Shown one piece after another: positions 3,450-28,569 of a stretch of DNA of 38,813 nt; position 1 is the stretch's first letter, and each line of letters begins with the position of its first letter. Below the pieces are notes generated by a model. That model ran no database searches. It saw nothing but the letters and a program-made list of their open reading frames with translations, and was not told the DNA's origin. The position numbers and the translations under genes were made by a program. Source of the stretch: a virus; the IMG/VR virus record IMGVR_UViG_3300032893_000160, positions 1-38,813 of that record; one strand, written 5' to 3'.

Positions 3450-4319
3450 ATGTCTAAGATGTTTCAAGTTTATGGTGTTGGTCAGGCTCTTTTTCCTGTT
3501 CTTCCACCTCCTTTGCCTTTTCAGAATGCGCCAACTAGCAACCAAACAAACTATGAAATTGGTCAGCTAGTTTTTACACCTCCTCATTCTCCTACAGCTT
3601 TTTATCTTTATGGTGGCGGAGGAAACTGGATTCAAATTGCTGATTCTGACGGACCAGTTGAATCAGTTTTAGGAACGACTAATCAGATTACCGTAACGAC
3701 TTCTTCTGGAGTAGCGACCGTCTCCTTACCTTCGGCTATCGTTGCCCCAGGATCGTTGACTACAACTACCACTTTAGCAGCCACAACCACTATTACTGCT
3801 GGTACAGGATTAACAGTGACGACAGGAAATGCTGTGGTTTCGACAGGTAATATTACAGCAACATTAGGAAACATAGCTGCTACCGCTGGATCAGTATCCG
3901 CTGGAACTACTGTGTCAGCAGGAACTACAGTGACAGCTGGAACAGGAATCACTTCAACTACAGGCAACATTGTCGCAACTGCTGGTGCTGTGAATGCTGG
4001 AACCTCAATGACAGCAACCTTGGGTAATATCACCGCAACAAATGGTAACGTTGTATTGAATACAGCAGGAAATAAAATAGTCATCGCAACAGGTTCAAAC
4101 GCATCTGTAGGAACTTCATCAGCTATGTCGGGAACTCCAGGCGCAGTAACAGTGGCCACAACAGCTTGCTCTGCTACTGCTAAGATCTTCTATTCAAGAG
4201 CTACTACTGGAGGAACACCAGGACAAGTTTCCATTACTGCGCAAGATGGAACCGGATTTACTCTTACCTCAACTGGTAATGAGACATCTACATTTAACTG
4301 GTGGATTATTAACGCATAA
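3450..4319 (+). CDS. Tail-fibre-like protein with TG-rich beta repeats
   Basis: This 289-residue protein has an N-terminal Pro-rich segment (VLPPPLPFQNAP) and a GW-like patch (YLYGGGGNWIQIADSDG). A long low-complexity region of Thr/Gly/Ala-rich repeats (TAGTG, TTGN, ATLGNI units, about residues 110-215) follows, typical of triple-stranded beta fibres. The C-terminal domain, from about 220, ends in FNWWIINA. AGGAG lies about ten bases before the ATG. It opens the fibre cluster and probably encodes a receptor-binding or fibre component. The exact family is not recognised. Confidence 0.75.
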   Translation: MSKMFQVYGVGQALFPVLPPPLPFQNAPTSNQTNYEIGQLVFTPPHSPTAFYLYGGGGNWIQIADSDGPVESVLGTTNQITVTTSSGVATVSLPSAIVAPGSLTTTTTLAATTTITAGTGLTVTTGNAVVSTGNITATLGNIAATAGSVSAGTTVSAGTTVTAGTGITSTTGNIVATAGAVNAGTSMTATLGNITATNGNVVLNTAGNKIVIATGSNASVGTSSAMSGTPGAVTVATTACSATAKIFYSRATTGGTPGQVSITAQDGTGFTLTSTGNETSTFNWWIINA

Positions 4320-6979: not shown

Positions 6980-8271
6980 TGGCTTACCGAAATTATAGTG
7001 TGGCTAATGGTTTTACAGTCGATCCAGCTGGAAACGGGGATTTTAAAACAATTGCGGCTGCCTTAACAGCAGCTTCAAGTCGAGGTGGCTCTGGAAGAAT
7101 AATATTAATGCCAGGAACTTATTCGGAAAATCCAGCTCTTGTTGCTGGATGGAATATAGAATCTTTCGTTGGCGATGGAATAACGCCTACAGTCACAATA
7201 TCAGGTACCTGTTCTTTTAGTTCAGTAGGAACGGTATGTATTAGCGGTGTTCGTCTTGCTTCTAATGGTGCAGAATTTCTTACGGTGACGGGTAGCGCAG
7301 CATCTGTAGTGAATTTATATAATTGTTATTTAACTACAGCTTTTGATCCTGGAATAACATATTCTTCCAGTTCTTCAAGCTCAGGAATAACTATTAGTTA
7401 CTGCCGATGTGATATATCTGCCTCAGCAAAAAAATTCTTCGCACATTCAAGTGCAGGAACTCTGAATATAATTCACAGCATTTGTACTAATAGCGGAGCA
7501 TCCACAACAGCAAGTACCTGCTCCTCAGGTGTTATAGGATGTCTTTTCTCACAAATAGCATTTCCCATAACTACTTCAAGCACAGGTGTTTTTTCAGGGA
7601 ATGAAACTTCTTTTAACACTGGAGCATTCAATACAACTCCTGTTACATGTGGTGGTGGAACAAGTTCTGGTATTCTCTGTGATTTTAATGGTGGTACAGC
7701 CTCGGCTTTATCTGTAGGCGGAACGCTTGGTTTAACTCAATGTACAATTGGGAGCTCAAATACTAATGCCGTTACAGGTGCAGGAACATTAACCTATTCT
7801 AATATTGCATTTAGCAGTACATCTTCCAAGATTAATGTCACAACTCAAACAGGTGGAGTTGGCTATGGAGGAGTCGTTCAAGCACCTTCTGCTGGATTTA
7901 TCGGTGAAAGAATTGAAAATACAGCCACTTCTGTTGCAATGACATCAAACACCCCAAAGACAGTCACAAGTATTAGTTTAACAGCTGGTGTATGGGACGT
8001 TTCTGGTTTAGCTGCTACCATTGCAACAGGCGGAACTGCCCTTGCTCAAGCATTTGTTGTTAATATTAGCACGACAGATAATACTGTTGTAGGAACTGCT
8101 GGGATACAAACATTCCAAACTAATGTGGCTGCTACTGTACTTTCTGGAAGCGTTCCTGCATATAGAGTCACATTAACAGCAACTACGACATATTATTTAG
8201 TGTGCAATGTCGTTTACACATCTACTACAGCACCAACAAATGGAAGACTTTCCGCAACAAGAGTGGGATGA
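6979..8271 (+). CDS. Tailspike-like beta-helix protein
   Basis: The 430-residue protein begins with a segment typical of right-handed beta-helix proteins (DPAGNGDFKTIAAALTAAS, then RIILMPGTYSENP), as in pectate-lyase-fold tailspikes. Ser/Thr/Gly-rich short strands fill about residues 80-290. A C-terminal domain from about 305 (GFIGERIENTATSVAMTSNTP, then TVTSISLTAGVWDVSGL) is a common fibre tip. No catalytic residues can be assigned, so it may bind or cleave a surface glycan. It is translated from an ATG overlapping the previous stop and is followed closely by the glycosyltransferase gene. Confidence 0.8.
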   Translation: MAYRNYSVANGFTVDPAGNGDFKTIAAALTAASSRGGSGRIILMPGTYSENPALVAGWNIESFVGDGITPTVTISGTCSFSSVGTVCISGVRLASNGAEFLTVTGSAASVVNLYNCYLTTAFDPGITYSSSSSSSGITISYCRCDISASAKKFFAHSSAGTLNIIHSICTNSGASTTASTCSSGVIGCLFSQIAFPITTSSTGVFSGNETSFNTGAFNTTPVTCGGGTSSGILCDFNGGTASALSVGGTLGLTQCTIGSSNTNAVTGAGTLTYSNIAFSSTSSKINVTTQTGGVGYGGVVQAPSAGFIGERIENTATSVAMTSNTPKTVTSISLTAGVWDVSGLAATIATGGTALAQAFVVNISTTDNTVVGTAGIQTFQTNVAATVLSGSVPAYRVTLTATTTYYLVCNVVYTSTTAPTNGRLSATRVG

Positions 8272-8276
8272 TTATT

Positions 8277-9158
8277 ATGAAAAAATTATTGAGTTTTCTT
8301 TTTTGTCTTTTTATTACTTCATGTTGTGCTTATCAATACGATTTATCAATCTGCACAATTTTTCGTGATGAAGCTCCATATTTGAAAGAATGGATTGAAT
8401 ATCATCGATTGCTAGGAGTACAGCATTTCTATTTATGTAATCATAATAGTTTAGATAATTATAACGAAGTTTTAGATCATTATATTAAAGAAGGAATTGT
8501 AGAATTAAAAGAAATCTCAGATAGTCCAAAAGCTGATCTTGCTGATTTCACGTTTAATTTTCAGACTAAATGGTATACCGAATGCCTTGTTAAAGCAAAA
8601 GATCAGAGTAAATGGGTTGCTTTTTTAGATTCTGATGAATTTTTATGCCTACTAGATGGAAATAATTTAGTTGATTTCTTAAAAAATTATGAAGAATTCG
8701 GTGGTGTTTCTTTGAATTGGTTCTTTTTCGGAACATCAAATATTCAACAATTATGTCCGAATAAATTAATGATAGAACAATTAACTTGTTGTTCTCTTCA
8801 CTCTAATGAGAATTTCACATTATTAAAATGCATTGTTCAACCTAGATATGTCTCACAATTTCGAAGTCCGCATTTTGCTGATTTCTTACCTGGATATTTT
8901 GCTGTTAATACAAATCAAGAACCTCTTCTAAATGAACCTTGGAAAGGTGTCCTTCTTTTCGATAAATTAAGGATTAATCATTACTGGACAAGGGAGGAAG
9001 AATACTTCTGGAAAGTAAAAATCCCACGTCAAATTCAATTGCATGGTCAAACTGAAACTGCCATGTCTTTTTATGTCGATTTTAATAAATCAGAAAATTT
9101 TGACATTCAGAAATTCGTTCCAGAGCTAAGGAAAAAAATGGGATACGATAAAAAGTAA
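8277..9158 (+). CDS. Lipoprotein glycosyltransferase, GT92 (DUF23)-like
   Basis: After a lipoprotein signal (hydrophobic LLSFLFCLFITSC, lipobox I-T-S-C with Cys16) comes a GT92-like domain: LSICTIFRDEAPYLKEWIEYH (about 23-43), GVQHFYLCNHNSLD, and the acidic DxD-like FLDSDEF (about 123-129). HYWTREEEYFW near residue 240 fits the C-terminal part of the family. The true start is ATG 8277, because starting here puts the signal peptide at the N terminus; a longer frame upstream only overlaps the tailspike gene. The family transfers hexoses to glycans. A version anchored as a lipoprotein is odd and suggests that it acts in the periplasm or at the surface. Its place behind the spike genes suggests receptor modification, which is an inference. 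Confidence 0.8.
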   Translation: MKKLLSFLFCLFITSCCAYQYDLSICTIFRDEAPYLKEWIEYHRLLGVQHFYLCNHNSLDNYNEVLDHYIKEGIVELKEISDSPKADLADFTFNFQTKWYTECLVKAKDQSKWVAFLDSDEFLCLLDGNNLVDFLKNYEEFGGVSLNWFFFGTSNIQQLCPNKLMIEQLTCCSLHSNENFTLLKCIVQPRYVSQFRSPHFADFLPGYFAVNTNQEPLLNEPWKGVLLFDKLRINHYWTREEEYFWKVKIPRQIQLHGQTETAMSFYVDFNKSENFDIQKFVPELRKKMGYDKK

Positions 9159-16705: not shown

Positions 16706-16802
16706 GAATGCGGCTAGCCTCGAACTAGCTTATTAACTTGAGACCTAAAGGAGTCTTAATTCTTTATTTTTACAAGTTAACACGATCCCACTTCACGCAT
16801 TC
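16706..16802 (-). ncRNA. tRNA-like RNA element beside the RNA ligase gene
   Basis: On the minus strand, 97 bases fold with a perfect 7-bp acceptor-like helix (GAATGCG with CGCATTC). Immediately inside the 3' acceptor strand is a 5-bp arm GCTAG/CTAGC with loop TTCGAGG, close to the T-loop consensus TTCRANY. A third helix, TTAACTTG/CAAGTTAA, takes the place of the anticodon arm, with a 32-base loop that contains a small AGAC/GTCT hairpin. The 15-base segment between acceptor and third helix (with GGGATCG) replaces the D arm. No anticodon loop and no CCA end can be assigned. The layout resembles the tRNA-like domain of tmRNA or a degenerate tRNA. It overlaps the ligase stop codon by two bases. 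Confidence 0.55.
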
Positions 16803-17475
16803 AAAATTCTTTGCATTTCAATTTGAACATAATCGGATCACCTTTTCGGTACATAACCAATGGTGAAGGTCTAGCAATAATTCCTTCCATAACTTGGGGA
16901 GTTATTGAACATTGACTTAGTGGTTTACTTTTAACAAATTCAACTATTTCTCCTTCGGTCATAATTCCTATTTGGGGAACCATAGGTATCCCGAATTGTT
17001 CTGCAACATCCTTGCACGAACTCCTCTCCAACCACCAGCCAGACACATAAACATCAAAAAGAATGAAGCCAACATCTTTTCTATAATTTCCTCCCCCTTT
17101 TTGAATTTTCGTCCCATATCCTTCACCAAATAATATTACGTACGGATAAGATTCGTTTTCTTTAACAGGAAAAACCTTACTAAAATTCCAATCACCAAAA
17201 TTTGCTTGAAGATAGTCAAATAAATGACAGGGGATTTGTGCATCTTTAGTACGACCGCCAAATCTTACTTTTCCATCTTGGTAGAAAATTCTGATATTTG
17301 TACCGTCCACTTTTTCGTCAACGGTCCACTTCTTGATATTTTCAAATTCTGGGAAAGCGTAATCACCCACGATAAATGATTGTCTACCTTTCTGATAATC
17401 TGGGGAGTTCTTTTTTCCTTCATCGAAGTACCATCCTTCACGCTTCCATAAGCTATTTATCTTCGGATATTCCAT
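16801..17475 (-). CDS. RNA ligase (Rnl2-like nucleotidyltransferase fold)
   Basis: The 224-residue protein has covalent nucleotidyltransferase motifs: motif I EKVDGTN (about 53-59, Lys54 would take AMP), RFGGRT (motif Ia-like, about 72-77), motif III-like ILFGEGYGTKI, motif IV EGIIARP, and motif V FKLKCKEF at the very end. It would seal nicks in RNA, usually repairing tRNA cut by host defence nucleases. It is near the minimal catalytic size and lacks a C-terminal domain. The predicted promoter at 17504-17532 drives it, divergent from the GroES-like gene. A tRNA-like element follows on the same transcript. Confidence 0.85.
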   Translation of the reverse strand: MEYPKINSLWKREGWYFDEGKKNSPDYQKGRQSFIVGDYAFPEFENIKKWTVDEKVDGTNIRIFYQDGKVRFGGRTKDAQIPCHLFDYLQANFGDWNFSKVFPVKENESYPYVILFGEGYGTKIQKGGGNYRKDVGFILFDVYVSGWWLERSSCKDVAEQFGIPMVPQIGIMTEGEIVEFVKSKPLSQCSITPQVMEGIIARPSPLVMYRKGDPIMFKLKCKEF

Positions 17476-22614: not shown

Positions 22615-24630
22615 ATGCGAAATAACGATCCAATTTTTTGGCCGGAAGACTCTTTAAATATCTCATTGCGTCAGAGTATGGAAAAGAATTACTCAGACAG
22701 CATTAATATTTTACAGACTCAATGGTATCAGGCAGATGTTAATCAAAGATTTACCATAAATGACCAAGAGATTTGGGGACTAATTTTTCCAGGTGTTGCG
22801 ACATATCGAAGAAAGATATGGAACTTCAACATCATGAATCCCATCAGTGAAGCTATCAGTGGACAGCAAAGACAAACTAGAAAGAGTTCGGCTGTCATTC
22901 CCATACATAACGGGATGCAAAAGACAGCAGATCAGCTAACCAAGTGCCTCTATCATAATCATAAGTGCGGTTTCCATCAAACATTTAGCGACGCCTTCCA
23001 ATTAGGAGCTATCATTCAAGGACTTGGCTTCATGTACATGTATGCTGATTCTACGAAAGACCCGATTAGTCCCGATCCTAGATGGCGTTATGTAGACATG
23101 AAGTCATGTATATTTGATCCCTATTTCCGTAAGCATGACATGTCTGACGCTAGATTCTGGTGGGTTAGAACCTTCTTTGATGCTCAAGAAGCTGCTCTGA
23201 TGTATCCTCAATTTGGTGATGAGATTCTTTCTCTTCCAAAAGGGACATATCGCGATGACAAATTCTATTACATGCCTGAAGTTTACCAAATCCAGTTTCC
23301 TAACCTTATTGCATTCGATGAATATTGGTACCTCACAAACAGAGAAGCTACTTTTCTGGTGGATAAAAAGACAGAGGAATGCCAAGAATTCCAAGGAACA
23401 CCAGATCAGTTAAAAGAAGTGATGATGGCTTTTAGAGGAAAGCTTGCGACAATTAAAAAGCCTGTTCCTACTGTACGTAGAAGCATTATTTTGAATGATA
23501 GAGTAATCGTTGACGAACCAAATCCCTATGGCATGGATAGATATCCCGTTGTGCCAATGTTAGCTTTCTTCACTGCCGATACGCCATATTATGCGTACAA
23601 GTTCAACTCTCCAATGACCATGCTTCGTGATCCACAATACCTTCTGAACCGTCTTAAAGTATCTAATCTTGAAATATTAGACGCTCAACAGCAAGGACTC
23701 AAGGTTAAGAAAGGGGCTTTAGTTACTCCTGAAGATGCTTTGAATTCTGGACACGGTCGCGTTCTTTCGATTGATCCTGACTTTGAAATGTCAGACGTTG
23801 AAGCAATGCCAATCGTTCCTCCTTCTCCAGTCATGCTACAAATGGAAGAGATGTTAAAAGGAATCTTCTACAATATTGCCGGTATAGACCCAAATGCTAT
23901 GGGCATGGATATTGATGATAAAGCTGGCATTATTACCATGATGAGACAAGCCGCTACCGCTAGAAACCTACAAAGATTATTTGATCAGGCTGACGAATCT
24001 CAAAGATTATGCAGCGATATCGAGGTAGAATACATCCAAAAGAATTGGACATACGGAAAAGTCAGACAAGTCATCGGGGAAGAACCAACAGCCGAATTTG
24101 ATAGCAAAATCTTCTTTAAATATGGTTGTAAAGTTGTTCAAGCCGCTTTAACAGAGACCCAACAACAATTGGAATTAGCTCAAATTCTCCACTTCCAGCA
24201 GCTTTATCCTGACCTTATGCCTCCAGATGAAATTCTGGAATGTATGACAATTCAAAACAAAGACAGAATTATTGAAAAAGTCATGCAGAAACAGAAAGCA
24301 ATGCAAGAGCAGCAACAAAGAGTTGAACAATTGCAAATGCAAGAAATCCAAGTCAATAATATGACTAAAGTTGCATACGCTCATAGTCAGGAAGGATTAG
24401 CTAAAGAACGAGTAGCCAAGATTCAAACAGATCAAGCAGTTGCTCACGACAAGATTAGAAGAGCTCATCAGGAAGATACGGCTAGCTTGCTTAATGTGGT
24501 TAAAGCTCTTAAAGAACTTAAAGGAATGGATCTTGATCATTTAATGAAACAGGTCGAAATCCTTAATGCTTTGAGTCCTGCCGCCAATCCTGAAGAGGAA
24601 GTGGTTGCAAATAATCAAAATGTTGCATGA
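22615..24630 (+). CDS. Portal protein, P22-like
   Basis: The 671-residue protein is near the size of P22 portal (725). Visible portal features are INPISEAISGQQRQTRK-like text (NIMNPISEAISGQQRQTRK, about residues 70-88), GAIIQGLGFMYMYAD (about 125), RYVDMKSCIFDPYF and ARFWWVRTFFD. Then come DRYPVVPMLAFF and a long C-terminal helix rich in Gln (about 535-600), the barrel region. It forms the dodecameric ring through which DNA enters and leaves. GGGTG lies before the ATG. Scaffold and capsid genes are about 4 kb downstream, separated by the partition and accessory genes, an unusual insertion in the head operon. Confidence 0.9.
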   Translation: MRNNDPIFWPEDSLNISLRQSMEKNYSDSINILQTQWYQADVNQRFTINDQEIWGLIFPGVATYRRKIWNFNIMNPISEAISGQQRQTRKSSAVIPIHNGMQKTADQLTKCLYHNHKCGFHQTFSDAFQLGAIIQGLGFMYMYADSTKDPISPDPRWRYVDMKSCIFDPYFRKHDMSDARFWWVRTFFDAQEAALMYPQFGDEILSLPKGTYRDDKFYYMPEVYQIQFPNLIAFDEYWYLTNREATFLVDKKTEECQEFQGTPDQLKEVMMAFRGKLATIKKPVPTVRRSIILNDRVIVDEPNPYGMDRYPVVPMLAFFTADTPYYAYKFNSPMTMLRDPQYLLNRLKVSNLEILDAQQQGLKVKKGALVTPEDALNSGHGRVLSIDPDFEMSDVEAMPIVPPSPVMLQMEEMLKGIFYNIAGIDPNAMGMDIDDKAGIITMMRQAATARNLQRLFDQADESQRLCSDIEVEYIQKNWTYGKVRQVIGEEPTAEFDSKIFFKYGCKVVQAALTETQQQLELAQILHFQQLYPDLMPPDEILECMTIQNKDRIIEKVMQKQKAMQEQQQRVEQLQMQEIQVNNMTKVAYAHSQEGLAKERVAKIQTDQAVAHDKIRRAHQEDTASLLNVVKALKELKGMDLDHLMKQVEILNALSPAANPEEEVVANNQNVA

Positions 24631-25060: not shown

Positions 25061-25175
25061 AGTTTTACATTGGGCTGGGGATTCCTAGCCGTGTAATTTT
25101 GGGGTACACTCGCATATGTCACCCTCTTTAAAGGTTTGGCTACTGAACCAGCCTGGCAAATCAGTAGCTTTTATT
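25061..25175. other. Non-coding stretch with possible small hairpins
   Basis: No gene is seen here. Short hairpins are possible: GGCT/AGCC followed at once by GTGTA/TACAC (about 25074-25113), and GGTT/AACC further on. The stretch is GC-richer than its surroundings. It could be an RNA leader or a binding site; nothing is decisive. Confidence 0.3.
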
Positions 25176-25274
25176 ATGAAGAAAACTCCCACCAAAAAAA
25201 TCATCCGAACCATTGGAAATCCTCTTCCTCTCCAAAAAAATCCACTTATCCGAAAAAAAAGCAGTAAAAAATAG
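25176..25274 (+). CDS. Possible 32-residue basic peptide
   Basis: A short frame encodes a Lys/Pro-rich peptide (KKTPTKKIIRTIGNPLPLQK, then NPLIRKKSSKK). There is no clear ribosome site. It resembles the tiny basic protein at 33707-33823 in style (basic, with PLP and a GN/GG..P). It may be real or chance. Confidence 0.35.
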   Translation: MKKTPTKKIIRTIGNPLPLQKNPLIRKKSSKK

Positions 25275-25320
25275 ATTTTCTTGCTAAGATAAATTTACAA
25301 GAAAACATAAGGAAAATTTT

Positions 25321-25665
25321 ATGTTTAGACTTTTTTTAGGATTATCTTTGATTTTAGGTTCTTTTTGTCATGCGGCGGCATTTCAAATAAAAGACAAAAT
25401 GTACATTGACGTAGACTCTTTCAAAGCAAATACCAAAGGCGATGAATTCTATATCCATGTAGGAAATAACGTATGGTTGGTTACTCACAGTATTCATAGA
25501 GATGCTTCTGGCGTATTTGCATATGAAGAAAATCTTAGTAAAACATTGGGTGGTCCAGGATATAAATGTGAATATGAAAAGAAATGGAAATGTCCTTATT
25601 GCTATAACTATTGGCCAATAGGTACTGCCTGTCAAAATAAAGATTGTCCGTCAAAATATAAATAA
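25321..25665 (+). CDS. Secreted cysteine-rich protein with C-terminal zinc ribbon
   Basis: The 114-residue protein begins with a Sec signal peptide (FRLFLGLSLILGSFCHAAA, cleavage after AAA at about residue 20). The mature part has a beta-rich domain (DKMYIDVDSFKA, GDEFYIHVGNNVWLV, then EENLSKTLGG) and a Cys-rich end (WKCPYCYNYW, then ACQNKDC) that could bind zinc. AAGGAAAATTTT precedes the ATG. It stands alone with its own terminator, a moron-like arrangement next to the partition cassette. An exported phage protein suggests an effect on the host envelope or outside the cell; no family is recognised. Confidence 0.7.
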   Translation: MFRLFLGLSLILGSFCHAAAFQIKDKMYIDVDSFKANTKGDEFYIHVGNNVWLVTHSIHRDASGVFAYEENLSKTLGGPGYKCEYEKKWKCPYCYNYWPIGTACQNKDCPSKYK

Positions 25666-25696
25666 TTAGACATCTAAAGTTTATATTATTCTCTTA

Positions 25697-25724
25697 GGCT
25701 CCCATCGCGGAGCCATTTTTATTT
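25697..25724 (+). terminator. Rho-independent terminator
   Basis: GGCTCC (25697-25702) and GGAGCC (25709-25714) form a perfect GC-rich stem around CATCGC, followed by ATTTTTATTT. It ends the secreted-protein transcript and insulates the partition cassette. Confidence 0.88.
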
Positions 25725-25732
25725 CAACAACC

Positions 25733-25815
25733 TCACATATATAAATTATATTTGCCACATATTGACAATATAGATATGGTATATGTCATGTATATATATA
25801 ACATATAGGAGACAT
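25733..25815. promoter_or_regulatory. Candidate centromere/operator and promoter region of the partition cassette
   Basis: This very AT-rich stretch contains many ATAT and ACATAT elements, a TTGACA box (25762-25767) and a repeat, TATATGTCATGTATAT, at 25780-25795. A near copy lies after the first gene of the cassette. AGGAGA before the ATG at 25816 is the ribosome site. Centromeres and operators recognised by ribbon-helix-helix partition proteins are typically repeated AT-rich sites upstream of the ATPase gene. Confidence 0.55.
25780..25795. repeat. Partition-site repeat, copy 1 (TATATGTCATGTATAT)
   Basis: This 16-base element differs by one base from copy 2 at 26457-26472. The two flank the ATPase gene. 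Confidence 0.6.
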
Positions 25816-26463
25816 ATGATAATCGTCATAGGTGGCATTAAAGGTGGCAGTGGAAAAACAACGATTGCCACTAATTTAGCGGTTATGAGGTCATCAGCTG
25901 GTAAGAAAGTTTTGTTAGTTGATGCAGACGAACAAAGGAGCGCATGGGAATGGTCCCAACAAAGAGATGCTTGCGAACCTGATCTATTGAAAGGTATTTT
26001 CTCAACGGTTTGCATGTCGGGAAAAGCTATCTATTCCAATCTAATAAGATTAAAAGAAGATTATGATGATATCATCGTTGATACTGGTGGTCGAGACACC
26101 ACATCTCAACGTTCCGCTTTATCTATTGCAGACAAACTAATCCTTCCTTTCAAGCCAAGCTCTATCGATGTTTGGACTATGATTCCCATTAAAGCTATTT
26201 TGAGTGAATGTTTGAATGAAAATCTAAAAACTTATGCCATGATTAGTCAAGCCGATCCGGTAGGAAAAGACAACGAGCAAGCTAAAGACATTCTTAAAGA
26301 AGCAGAAAATATCAAAACATTAGAAAATACTATAGGGAACCGAAAAGCATTTCGTAATGCTTCGGGTGAAGGTCTAGGAGTTCAAGAATTATTCCCATTA
26401 GATAAAAAAGCACTACAAGAAGTAGAAGAGCTTTACAATATAATATATATGCATCATATATGA
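25816..26463 (+). CDS. ParA-family partition ATPase
   Basis: The 215-residue protein has the deviant Walker A box KGGSGKTT (about 7-14) of ParA/MinD ATPases, VDADEQRSAWEW (Walker A' region, about 38-49) and DIIVDTGGRD (Walker B, about 79-88). It lacks the N-terminal HTH of type Ia ParA, so it is of the small type Ib class. I start at ATG 25816, after AGGAGA, rather than 11 codons upstream. It should move episome copies over the nucleoid with the RHH protein that follows. It is the strongest sign that this phage lives as a plasmid. Confidence 0.9.
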   Translation: MIIVIGGIKGGSGKTTIATNLAVMRSSAGKKVLLVDADEQRSAWEWSQQRDACEPDLLKGIFSTVCMSGKAIYSNLIRLKEDYDDIIVDTGGRDTTSQRSALSIADKLILPFKPSSIDVWTMIPIKAILSECLNENLKTYAMISQADPVGKDNEQAKDILKEAENIKTLENTIGNRKAFRNASGEGLGVQELFPLDKKALQEVEELYNIIYMHHI

Positions 26464-26472
26464 CATGTATAT
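26457..26472. repeat. Partition-site repeat, copy 2 (TATATGACATGTATAT)
   Basis: One mismatch to copy 1 upstream of the ATPase gene. It covers the end of that gene and lies about 40 bases before the RHH gene. Confidence 0.55.
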
Positions 26473-26514
26473 GTGATACATATTAAATAAGTATAAGATA
26501 AATATGGGAGATAT

Positions 26515-26763
26515 ATGGTAGTTAAAAAGGTGAATCGTTCTATAAATGATTTTATAGAAAAAGGAGCGGATGTTAAAGAGTCTAAATCAAAGGATTTTAA
26601 GAACGTATTATTTAGGATACCAACCTCTGTTTTGACAGAATTAGATAAATTAGTGGAGAAAAAGCCATGGCTAAACAGAACTCAATGGATTGTTGAAGCT
26701 ATCAATGACAAAATAAAGAGCGAGTACGATGCGAGTAAAGAAGACAATAGAGCAGGAAATTAA
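26515..26763 (+). CDS. Ribbon-helix-helix partition/centromere-binding protein
   Basis: The 82-residue protein has a flexible basic N terminus (VKKVNRSINDFIEKGADVKE) and a C-terminal ribbon-helix-helix: strand NVLFRIP (about 32-38), then helix LTELDKLVEKKP and helix NRTQWIVEAINDKIK. This resembles ParG/Omega-type centromere-binding partners of small ParA proteins. GGGAGATAT precedes the ATG. It is encoded right after the ATPase gene, and the AT-rich repeats around both genes are its likely sites. It probably also represses the cassette. Confidence 0.8.
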   Translation: MVVKKVNRSINDFIEKGADVKESKSKDFKNVLFRIPTSVLTELDKLVEKKPWLNRTQWIVEAINDKIKSEYDASKEDNRAGN

Positions 26764-27025
26764 TGAATTCTTGGAGAAATGGGATGCTAATCAGATGTGT
26801 GATTTTCTTCGGGATATCATTCCACTTTTTGAACTTTATGATGTAGAAGATGAAAATGACTGGGTAAAAGAAGCAGTAGGTGAGTTGAACGAAAGAAACG
26901 TACGACTGATTCGTACAGTTTATTTAGTCTCTCGGATAGCAGAATTTCACGCTGGAATTCTTGCTTCAATAAAAATGAATTTCAAAGATTTATATAGGAG
27001 AATGGAGAAGCATGGGATGGAATAA
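26729..27025 (+). CDS. Hypothetical helical protein after the partition cassette
   Basis: The 98-residue product is acidic to neutral and helical (EQEINEFLEKWDANQMCDFLR, split, then VRLIRTVYLVSRIAEFHAGI). It overlaps the RHH gene by 35 bases and the next gene by 14. No family is recognised; it could belong to the cassette or to the accessory genes that follow. Confidence 0.6.
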   Translation: MRVKKTIEQEINEFLEKWDANQMCDFLRDIIPLFELYDVEDENDWVKEAVGELNERNVRLIRTVYLVSRIAEFHAGILASIKMNFKDLYRRMEKHGME

Positions 27026-27326
27026 AATTGCAGAAGCTGGAGTACCAAATAAAGATGGAAGATACTTCGTTTTATACACTTTTGAGAAAAATGTTGTTTC
27101 GTGTGGCAAACATTGCAGAAGAAATGTTCCAGGCGTTAGTAATTTCTTTCATGGGAAATGGACCGCTTTGACAGATGAAATGATGATAACTCACTGGATG
27201 GATGTGCCAGGCTTACCTGATGAAGAACTAGAAATTGATGACTCTGATGAAAAGGTAAAAGAAATGAAGGAAAAAACAAGATCAATGACACCTGAAGATT
27301 TTATGCAATTAATGAGGTCAAGATGA
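27012..27326 (+). CDS. DUF551-like phage protein
   Basis: The 104-residue protein has the layout of DUF551: an N-terminal WNKIAEAGVPNKDGRYFVLY (about 3-22), a strand with VVSCGKH, and then ITHWMDVPGLPDEE (about 59-72), the family signature (THWMPLP). The C-terminal 30 residues are an acidic/basic extra helix. DUF551 proteins are common in phages; no function is known. It is coupled to both neighbours (ATGG and ATGA overlaps). Confidence 0.7.
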   Translation: MGWNKIAEAGVPNKDGRYFVLYTFEKNVVSCGKHCRRNVPGVSNFFHGKWTALTDEMMITHWMDVPGLPDEELEIDDSDEKVKEMKEKTRSMTPEDFMQLMRSR

Positions 27327-27604
27327 GTGGAGAATGCGAAAAATGCTGGGAACACTGTTTAGATTGTAAATGTCCCATTCCTTTAGGGGATGGGGAAAAT
27401 CCTCCTGCCGAACAAATTCCTGTTCGATATGTAAATGTTCGAGGAAGGGAAGAGCATGAAGCTATTATCAAGGATTCTAAGAAATGTGAAGAACTTGGAT
27501 TAGACCAATATTATGAAATAATGGTTTATCTGAAAAGATGGGGAAATTGGCTAGATAAAACAACAGAAAAAAATGCAAAAAATCACAAATTTCGCATCCT
27601 CTAA
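27323..27604 (+). CDS. Hypothetical protein with N-terminal cysteine motif
   Basis: The 93-residue protein starts with ECEKCWEHCLDCKCPIP, five Cys residues that could bind a metal. A charged middle (REEHEAIIKDSKKCEELGLD) and a basic end follow. It is last in the rightward accessory unit. No family is recognised. Confidence 0.6.
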   Translation: MSGECEKCWEHCLDCKCPIPLGDGENPPAEQIPVRYVNVRGREEHEAIIKDSKKCEELGLDQYYEIMVYLKRWGNWLDKTTEKNAKNHKFRIL

Positions 27605-27736
27605 AACTATATGTAGGCTGTGTGGTTGCCTGACATCTATACCAAAAGGCAAATCAAGTTCACATATATGCGAGGGCTTCTTAGAGGCCCTACACATATA
27701 CTGGAATGGTCCATAAATGAAACATAATATAGGTTA
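27605..27736. other. Short intergenic region between convergent genes
   Basis: No gene is seen. AGGGC (27673-27677) and GCCCT (27687-27691) could form a small hairpin flanked by CACATATA repeats, perhaps a weak terminator; it has no T-tract. Confidence 0.3.
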
Positions 27737-28285
27737 TCAGACTACGACCCTAGCTTCTTTCTGCCCATCTTTACTTCCAATTAAGAAGTCTCCACGATAT
27801 AGCTGATTTTCTATCCAATTTCCTTCGCTATCCTTGGTAAATCCGAAATATTCGAGCTGAAGATTCTCCCATCTTTTGATTTGAGATACTTGATTTTGAT
27901 CATAAAGACTAGGATTCATCAAGATATTCATCATTTGCGATCTATGTGGTAATTCCCAACAAAAATAAACATCTCCATTAGGATAAACATGGAACAACAT
28001 CATATCTTGTTCAGGATAAGGACGATATTTTGTAATCTTACGAATCCTAACTAGCCCTTTTTTTAGCATTAGGTCGTATTTTTCGTAGATAGCTAAATAA
28101 AATGGCTTGTCTCCCATTTCCTTAGAACCTTGTTCAATCGCTTCATTAATGTCTTTCACTAAATCTTTTTTGATTTCATGAGAAACATCTCCAATAACTA
28201 CTCCTCTTTCGCCATTTATTTGTGCATCTCTATAGATAGACCCAACAGTATTTCGTGATGGATCTATATGTGATTTAAATTCCAT
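27737..28285 (-). CDS. Hypothetical accessory protein
   Basis: The 182-residue protein is mixed alpha/beta (VIGDVSHEIKKDLVKDINEA, DMMLFHVYPNGDVYFCWELP, YRGDFLIGSKDGQKEARVVV). I start at ATG 28285 because AGGAGGGGGAG lies six bases before it; a longer frame lies inside the zinc-finger gene. The stop of the upstream gene overlaps the start. No family is recognised. With the next gene it forms a two-gene minus-strand unit with its own promoter, as expected for a moron or defence gene. Confidence 0.65.
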   Translation of the reverse strand: MEFKSHIDPSRNTVGSIYRDAQINGERGVVIGDVSHEIKKDLVKDINEAIEQGSKEMGDKPFYLAIYEKYDLMLKKGLVRIRKITKYRPYPEQDMMLFHVYPNGDVYFCWELPHRSQMMNILMNPSLYDQNQVSQIKRWENLQLEYFGFTKDSEGNWIENQLYRGDFLIGSKDGQKEARVVV

Positions 28286-28569
28286 TATGCTCCCCCTCCT
28301 GCTCGAACTTTTCTTGTCCAATGGTTTTTTATGAGTTTTTTGTGCCCTTTTTCTGCGCATTCATAGGAACAAAAAACAGTTCTTTGACGTTTTTTCAAGT
28401 TTTCTATTCGCACAACTTGCTTCCCACACATCCGGCAAAACGTTGGATTTGGCGTTCGCTTTCCCGTTGTTTTTTCGATCTTTTTCTGATATTCGCAGCG
28501 ATAACAAAATTTCTGATTTTTTATAAAATCTGTAACTAACCGATCAATTTTGCAACTATCACAAATCAT
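28285..28569 (-). CDS. Zinc-finger protein
   Basis: The 94-residue protein has two cysteine-pair modules: ICDSCKIDRLVTDF with FCYRCEYQ (about 2-29) and FCRMCGKQV with VFCSYECAEKGHKK (about 44-77). Both look like zinc ribbons or knuckles. The C terminus is basic (KNHWTRKVRAGGGA). I start at ATG 28569 with GTGAGG upstream; a GTG three codons earlier is possible. It probably binds nucleic acid. It is cotranscribed with the next gene from the promoter at 28590-28618. Confidence 0.65.
   Translation of the reverse strand: MICDSCKIDRLVTDFIKNQKFCYRCEYQKKIEKTTGKRTPNPTFCRMCGKQVVRIENLKKRQRTVFCSYECAEKGHKKLIKNHWTRKVRAGGGA

What the first reader, a model, noticed from the sequence alone, without database searches (positions are those of the whole stretch)
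25321..25665. Exported Cys-rich protein as a lone gene with its own terminator
A signal peptide plus a C-terminal Cys ribbon (CPYC, then C.....C) is unusual for a phage. The gene sits between a structured non-coding region and a strong terminator, next to the partition cassette, as expected for a gene expressed during episome carriage.
Basis: partly seen in the sequence, partly recalled or inferred. Interest (0 to 1): 0.5.

Follow-up and report, generated by a model that had tools for sequence, protein, structure and literature searches.

The report
Phage-borne exported chlamydial zinc-ribbon protein
A small exported protein in a virus of chlamydia-like bacteria turns out to belong to an undescribed family that the bacteria often keep beside a membrane-anchored partner gene, while the viruses seem to carry only the small half, which suggests they use it to interfere with, or stand in for, a piece of the host's cell envelope.

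Summary
The 114-codon gene at 25321-25665 is real: signal-peptide-like start, C-terminal four-Cys ribbon (CPYC-x9-C-x4-C), strong terminator at 25697-25714. It is not peculiar to this phage: 38 other IMG/VR contigs encode relatives. 'Lone gene with terminator' and 'next to parA' are local: 15 of 23 viral loci have a same-strand ORF within 50 bp, and 4 of 24 carrier records have ParA. It lies in an accessory island; close relatives lack it, hold a divergent version, or carry it elsewhere. The family comes from Chlamydiae, where it is often paired with an undescribed ~300-aa membrane-anchored protein ('GSKP'): 67 of 136 profile hits lie within 800 bp of one, 54 with the small gene first on the same strand. 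No GSKP was found in viral contigs. Two chromosomal copies without GSKP beside them fall inside the viral tree. Best reading: a host-derived accessory gene whose exported product imitates the small partner and acts on host GSKP. Family, export signature, patchiness and pairing are supported; zinc, GSKP binding and benefit are inferred. Expression during episomal carriage is untested.

The parts
25321..25665 (+). Gene for the exported Cys-ribbon protein (called ZR here), 114 aa
   Evidence: relatives in 38 further viral contigs; purifying selection
25321..25377 (+). Signal-peptide-like N-terminus (residues 1-19)
   Evidence: hydropathy and charge script, 26 of 26 members; AlphaFold helix 2-16
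25396..25524 (+). Small beta domain (residues 26-68) with the family motif I-H-x-G-x-N-x-W
   Evidence: AlphaFold strands 26-29, 34-36, 43-48, 51-55, 59-61, 64-68; invariant H46, G48, N50, W52, D61, G64 in 25 rows
25585..25656 (+). Four-Cys ribbon (residues 89-112), W-K-C-P-Y-C-x9-C-x4-C-P; zinc binding inferred
   Evidence: W89, C91, P92, Y93, C94, W98, C104, C109 invariant in 25 rows
25697..25714 (+). Intrinsic terminator after the gene
   Evidence: only weak candidates after 2 of the other 22 viral copies, none after 20
25073..25090 (+). Terminator-like hairpin after the upstream portal operon
25138..25169 (+). Second hairpin with T-run, similar sequence in L072, L085, L099, L112, whose fetched stretches have no ZR
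25061..27736 (.). Variable accessory island between the small gene after portal and the gene at 27737-28360; ZR, parA and small genes come and go here
   Evidence: portal neighbourhoods of related phages
25816..26463 (+). parA-like partition ATPase, neighbouring cargo of the same island
   Evidence: phrog_164 E 4.8e-40; Pfam AAA_31, MipZ
26515..26763 (+). Small gene often following parA (possible partition partner)
   Evidence: phrog_949, unknown function, E 8.9e-6; follows parA in several relatives
22615..24630 (+). P22-like portal gene, used to find related phages

Best explanation
ZR is an accessory gene that tailed phages of Chlamydiae took from their hosts. The protein is exported by its signal peptide; the mature ~95-aa protein is a small beta domain plus a C-terminal four-Cys (probably zinc) ribbon in the periplasm or beyond. 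In the bacteria such proteins are often encoded beside a ~300-aa protein ('GSKP') that looks anchored in the membrane by an N-terminal helix or a lipid. The phage carries only the small half. The most likely action is that phage ZR binds GSKP proteins of the infected cell in place of the host's own small partners and so blocks, retunes or stabilises them, changing the envelope to the phage's benefit. Shown: the gene, its export signature, the conserved ribbon, selection, the chlamydial family, gene pairing, patchy and mobile distribution in phages. Supported but less firm: return of phage copies to chromosomes. Inferred: zinc, location, binding to GSKP, outcome.
For: Nearest cellular relative found is a 70%-identical gene in a Chlamydiae MAG contig whose neighbours look chromosomal (ribosomal L13/S9-like, Mla-type transporter genes; named by eye). 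Profile A2 matches in 81 of 232 chlamydial genomes, many weakly. 67 of its 136 matches have a listed GSKP within 800 bp, 54 with ZR first on the same strand (GSKP list cut at 150 rows, so a lower bound). Distances co-vary over 32 pairs (Mantel r 0.587, 0 of 5000 permutations as high). GSKP has a TM- or signal-like N-terminus in 29 of 32 and ZR partners in 26 of 32; GSKP model pLDDT 86.6, helix 5-33. No GSKP found in viral contigs or in the window and viral loci L041-L147. Portal relatives in 10 of 232 chlamydial genomes, five on contigs of 35-41 kb. Two chromosomal copies lie inside the viral tree; AU p 0.031 against the viral rows as one clade; neither has GSKP within 800 bp.
Against: No direct evidence that phage ZR binds GSKP. 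69 of 136 ZR-profile matches have no listed GSKP within 800 bp, and weak matches may be false. In the fetched chromosomal loci 34 non-redundant pairs were found, but also 8 loci with GSKP only and 7 with ZR only (four of these seven are the two phage-like copies, each fetched twice). G001, with the 70%-identical copy, has no GSKP match at all: that copy works without it, or the MAG is incomplete. None of the ZR matches lies on a contig with a portal match. Co-variation of distances is confounded by shared ancestry. Neither protein has a convincing solved relative.
Confidence: 0.42

Rival explanations
1. Superinfection exclusion or receptor masking: exported ZR sits in the envelope of the carrier cell and blocks DNA entry or adsorption of related phages, without involving GSKP.
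For: Patchy and exchanged among close relatives: phages with ~90% identical portals carry a 58% or 48% identical ZR, or none; export signature; selection.
Against: No membrane anchor seen in the mature protein; lipobox-like motif in 1 of 26 members; does not explain why the family is paired with GSKP in hosts.
Confidence: 0.2
2. Conversion factor secreted beyond the bacterium into the vacuole or the eukaryotic host cell, benefiting carriers.
For: Signal-peptide-like start in 26 of 26; ZR-like genes are multi-copy in some chlamydiae (up to 9 profile matches in one genome).
Against: Nothing shows export past the outer membrane; about half of the chromosomal relatives are encoded with a membrane-anchored partner, which points to the envelope.
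Confidence: 0.17
3. Structural, lysis or assembly protein of the virion.
For: In this phage it lies between portal and head genes.
Against: None of 21 portal-selected records of at least 34 kb has a full-length ZR match, one has a weak partial match; the position moves, in several phages beside recombination genes.
Confidence: 0.05
4. Passenger host gene without use to the phage.
For: Patchy presence.
Against: Synonymous sites saturated while the protein is kept (pN 0.08 and 0.18 in the two closest non-identical pairs, 0.26-0.29 in five others); 15 invariant residues over 25 diverse rows.
Confidence: 0.04

Closest known systems
Lysogenic-conversion or 'moron' genes of temperate phages (e.g. 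sieA and gtrABC of P22: PMC10883804, start of abstract seen in the listing; the rest recalled)
   Same: Accessory, patchy, own terminator here, product with export signature, not part of the head-gene set
   Different: Host-derived, apparently the orphan half of a two-gene bacterial module; no control by a repressor shown; the phage group is hardly represented among GenBank phages
Chlamydial chromosomal ZR-GSKP gene pair (undescribed, defined here)
   Same: Same plan of the small protein: signal-peptide-like start, short middle domain, C-terminal four-Cys ribbon in most
   Different: Viral copies found here, and two phage-like chromosomal copies, have no GSKP beside ZR
Phage-encoded antitoxins or immunity proteins that copy one half of a host pair (concept recalled, not looked up)
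   Same: Phage keeps only the small partner of a paired, multi-copy host module
   Different: No toxicity of GSKP known; both proteins look envelope-located; no PADLOC match

Membership tests
Chlamydial ZR family (small exported ribbon proteins, defined here) | Significant profile or sequence match | tested here: met
   70% identity to the chlamydial copy, E 2.3e-54; viral rows branch with chlamydial rows
Chlamydial ZR family (small exported ribbon proteins, defined here) | Signal-peptide-like N-terminus | tested here: met
   hydropathy and charge only, no SignalP
Chlamydial ZR family (small exported ribbon proteins, defined here) | GSKP gene alongside (seen for about half of the chromosomal matches, so typical rather than defining) | tested here: not met
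   none in the window or the fetched viral loci, none confirmed in the viral collection: the phage gene is an orphan
Zinc ribbon | Four conserved Cys in two knuckles | tested here: met
   the spacing x2-x9-x4 is the same in all 25 rows
Zinc ribbon | Binds zinc rather than forming disulfides | not testable with these tools
   needs metal analysis; an exported protein could be oxidised
Rubredoxin-type LapB ribbon (PF18073) | Profile match over the curated cut-off | tested here: inconclusive
   2 of 9 members match weakly, best E 0.0054; the window protein itself is not among the matches
Moron / lysogenic-conversion gene | Accessory, absent from close relatives, not in a fixed place | tested here: met
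   4 of 72 portal-selected records match, one weakly and in part; place varies
Moron / lysogenic-conversion gene | Independent expression in the carrier state | not testable with these tools
   own terminator here, strong in none of the other 22 loci; no RNA data
Known anti-phage defence protein (PADLOC-DB 2.0.0) | Profile match | tested here: not met
   0 matches at E <= 1 for 2 ZR and 5 GSKP proteins; undescribed systems would be missed

The most novel reading that the evidence does not exclude
ZR-GSKP pairs are a multi-copy, specificity-matched envelope system of Chlamydiae (for example a periplasmic toxin with its restraining partner, or an envelope-level anti-phage system), and phages carry a free-standing small partner as a counter-measure: an exported 'antitoxin' or decoy. 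This would be a conflict system acting in the periplasm of obligate intracellular bacteria.
Probability: 0.15. Interest if true: 0.85.

Novelty: new variant of a known kind. Interest (0 to 1): 0.55.

Why it matters
Relatives of this tailed phage are numerous in metagenomes but hardly present among annotated GenBank phages (two portal matches at about 24% identity), and how such phages deal with an obligate intracellular host is open. A host-derived exported protein that they keep, swap and relocate points to an envelope component that matters to them. The ZR-GSKP pairing (ZR-like matches in 81, GSKP in 92 of 232 chlamydial genomes) is an undescribed module and offers a binding partner that can be tested directly.

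Tried and rejected
Families and structures: Pfam, PHROGs, NCBIfam and PDB sequence searches with the window protein gave nothing significant; GSKP likewise. Fold searches of ZR gave no solved relative (best E 1.5; best Z 2.6); one predicted viral protein matched (A0A6J5KV14, uncultured Caudovirales phage, uncharacterised, E 1.4e-4) and was not followed up. For GSKP the top three Foldseek rows are chains of one cysteine methyltransferase effector, NleE (probability 0.60-0.80, E 0.03-0.06, rmsd about 10). As that enzyme modifies zinc-finger cysteines (recalled), this was tempting, but the second aligner gives Z 2.9, rmsd 6.3, at rank 39, no Pfam family matched significantly, and GSKP seems to face the periplasm, so I do not use it.

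Rejected ideas: a regulatory RNA upstream of the gene (terminators; no Rfam family at gathering score; the four sub-threshold matches taken as chance); a fixed link to partition; a virion protein; a tRNA in the window (none).

Limits. Most viral records are fragments. The first viral scan used one pattern (W/Y-x-CPYC type) and the second two, so other ZR subtypes in viruses would be missed; the GSKP scan also used two short patterns. No random-position control was run for the ZR-GSKP adjacency; with a few GSKP genes per ~2-Mb genome I expect well under 1% by chance (own arithmetic). In the Mantel test two of 34 pairs were dropped for length. In the second tree three long-branch chromosomal rows (G117, G145, G121) were left out, support for the viral node fell to 87/88, and the AU test was made after the first tree had been seen. 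The chlamydial host is inferred and the cellular relatives; no other phylum was searched with the portal profile, and MAG binning can mislead. The genome-contig scan was made with the single sequence only. Paper searches, seen as listings, showed no paper on this family or these phages; they cover only the open-licence library.

Full report
What is there. The window is one 38,813-base virus record without an exact repeat at its ends. It has a P22-like portal, a terminase large subunit, a major head protein, a RecE-like exonuclease and ParA. The ORF at 25321-25665 is as described: 114 aa, a hydrophobic N-terminus with a basic start, and C91-P-Y-C94 / C104 / C109 near the C-terminus. A terminator follows at 25697-25714. 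The structured stretch before the gene contains terminator-like hairpins of the portal operon; the sequence of the one at 25138-25169 recurs in relatives whose fetched stretch lacks the gene.

It is a family. No library names it. One sequence finds a 70%-identical gene in a Chlamydiae MAG and matches in 8 of 232 chlamydial genomes. A nine-row profile finds 27 IMG/VR contigs; a 25-row one finds 38, which include those 27 (several are near-copies of each other, and L239 keeps only part of the protein). Across 25 rows the invariant residues are Y28 H46 G48 N50 W52 D61 G64 W89 C91 P92 Y93 C94 W98 C104 C109. Synonymous sites are saturated with few amino-acid changes. No match was found among GenBank phages or PLSDB plasmids. 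AlphaFold gives a signal helix, a small beta domain and a two-strand ribbon (mean pLDDT 78, pTM 0.50) without a solved look-alike.

In phages it is mobile cargo. Of the 80 best, 72 records were searched: 4 match the ZR profile, one of them weakly and in part. Of the 21 records of at least 34 kb among them, none has a full-length ZR match. This is a rough estimate, since L063's record, with a 90% identical portal and a ZR, is not among the 80. Between the small gene after portal and the gene at 27737, relatives carry ZR alone (L073 and L078, whose ZR genes are identical), parA with small genes, other small genes, or almost nothing (49-140 bp in L070, L077, L082). L063 has a 48% identical ZR there and no parA; L073 and L078 (portal 91%) a 58% identical one. 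L041, whose matching genes from the two ends of the window are 46-88% identical, has a 58% identical ZR between the relatives of the genes at 911-2833 and 3450-4319. In six other loci a relative of the recombination exonuclease lies nearby. In 23 viral loci, 15 have a same-strand ORF of at least 60 aa within 50 bp on one side or both; a strong terminator follows only the window's copy, weak candidates follow two others. A ParA match occurs in 4 of 24 carrier records, one of them with stop codons, and a tyrosine integrase in 1 of 24; many records are fragments.

In bacteria it often has a partner. Six chromosomal loci of the first set, and L019, place the small gene beside a ~300-aa protein with a G-S-K-P motif. 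A profile of that protein matches in 92 of 232 chlamydial genomes. Of 136 ZR-profile matches, 67 have a listed GSKP within 800 bp: 54 same strand with ZR first, 11 divergent, 2 convergent; 69 have none (GSKP list cut at 150 rows; seven of the pairs were used to build one or both profiles). Among the 20 best matches it is 17; two of the three exceptions are G001 and G071, the copies that fall inside the viral clade. In the loci fetched, 34 non-redundant pairs were seen, 8 loci had GSKP only and 7 ZR only. In 32 of the pairs, ZR distances follow GSKP distances (Mantel r 0.587; 0 of 5000 permutations); common descent contributes to this. GSKP has a TM- or signal-like N-terminus in 29 of 32 and a lipobox-like motif in 6. 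Its model is good (pLDDT 86.6, pTM 0.83), with no convincing solved relative. A scan of the viral collection of the same kind as that which found ZR confirmed no GSKP (38 pattern matches, none a relative), and a profile found none in the window or the viral loci L041-L147, which are stretches and not whole records.

Direction of transfer. The first tree puts six chromosomal relatives outside a viral clade (100/99) that contains two chromosomal copies. With nine more viral rows and without three long-branch chromosomal rows, that node has 87/88, the window groups with L073 and the chlamydial copy L002 (100/99), and holding all viral rows as one clade is disfavoured (AU p 0.031). The simplest history is capture from Chlamydiae, spread among their phages, and at least one return to a chromosome. 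Long branches and short sequences limit this.

Host. Portal relatives lie in 10 of 232 chlamydial genomes, five of them on contigs of 35,479, 39,844, 40,745, 36,464 and 39,969 bases, which fits phages or phage-plasmids of these bacteria. None of the ZR matches lies on these portal contigs. Only this phylum was searched. A paper on chlamydial plasmids (PMC7846284, passages seen) reports phage-type genes on some plasmids and ParA without ParB, so exchange between phages and plasmids in this group has been proposed.

How it likely works. Exported ZR most plausibly acts in the envelope. Because hosts often encode the same kind of protein next to a membrane-anchored partner, and phages seem to take only the small half, I propose that phage ZR engages host GSKP. 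Whether it blocks, stabilises or releases GSKP cannot be told. Alternatives are exclusion of other phages without GSKP, or secretion to the eukaryotic host.

Noticed in passing
L071:4479-4562, L074:4503-4579, L099:1934-2008: ARAGORN finds tRNA or odd tRNA-like genes (four-base anticodons gtcc and catg; Asp gtc) in the accessory island of 3 of 22 related loci scanned; the island may sit at a tRNA-like element.
   Followed up: partly
window 8202-9158: Phage-encoded glycosyltransferase family 92 protein (PF01697 E 2e-28) with an internal start that looks like a signal peptide (by eye); a relative is near ZR in L064/L065.
   Followed up: no
window 27323-27604: Small Cys-rich protein starting MSGECEKCWEHCLDCKC; a short similar stretch lies near ZR in several viral loci, and a similarity cluster of such small proteins spans 10 viral ZR loci.
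   Followed up: no
window 16801-17475 (-): RNA ligase (PF09414 E 3.3e-19) in a phage of what appear to be intracellular bacteria.
   Followed up: no
chlamydial genomes, e.g. L009:547-1467 (-): GSKP: undescribed ~300-aa membrane-anchored family with matches in 92 of 232 chlamydial genomes, several copies in some, confident model without a clear solved relative.
   Followed up: partly
L005:1492-1791 (-): Chromosomal ZR copy with the last Cys changed to Tyr and a stop codon in its apparent signal region, beside an open GSKP frame: it looks decayed.
   Followed up: no
L239:2887-3096: Viral contig with a 69-aa protein that keeps only an N-terminus and the ribbon of ZR.
   Followed up: no
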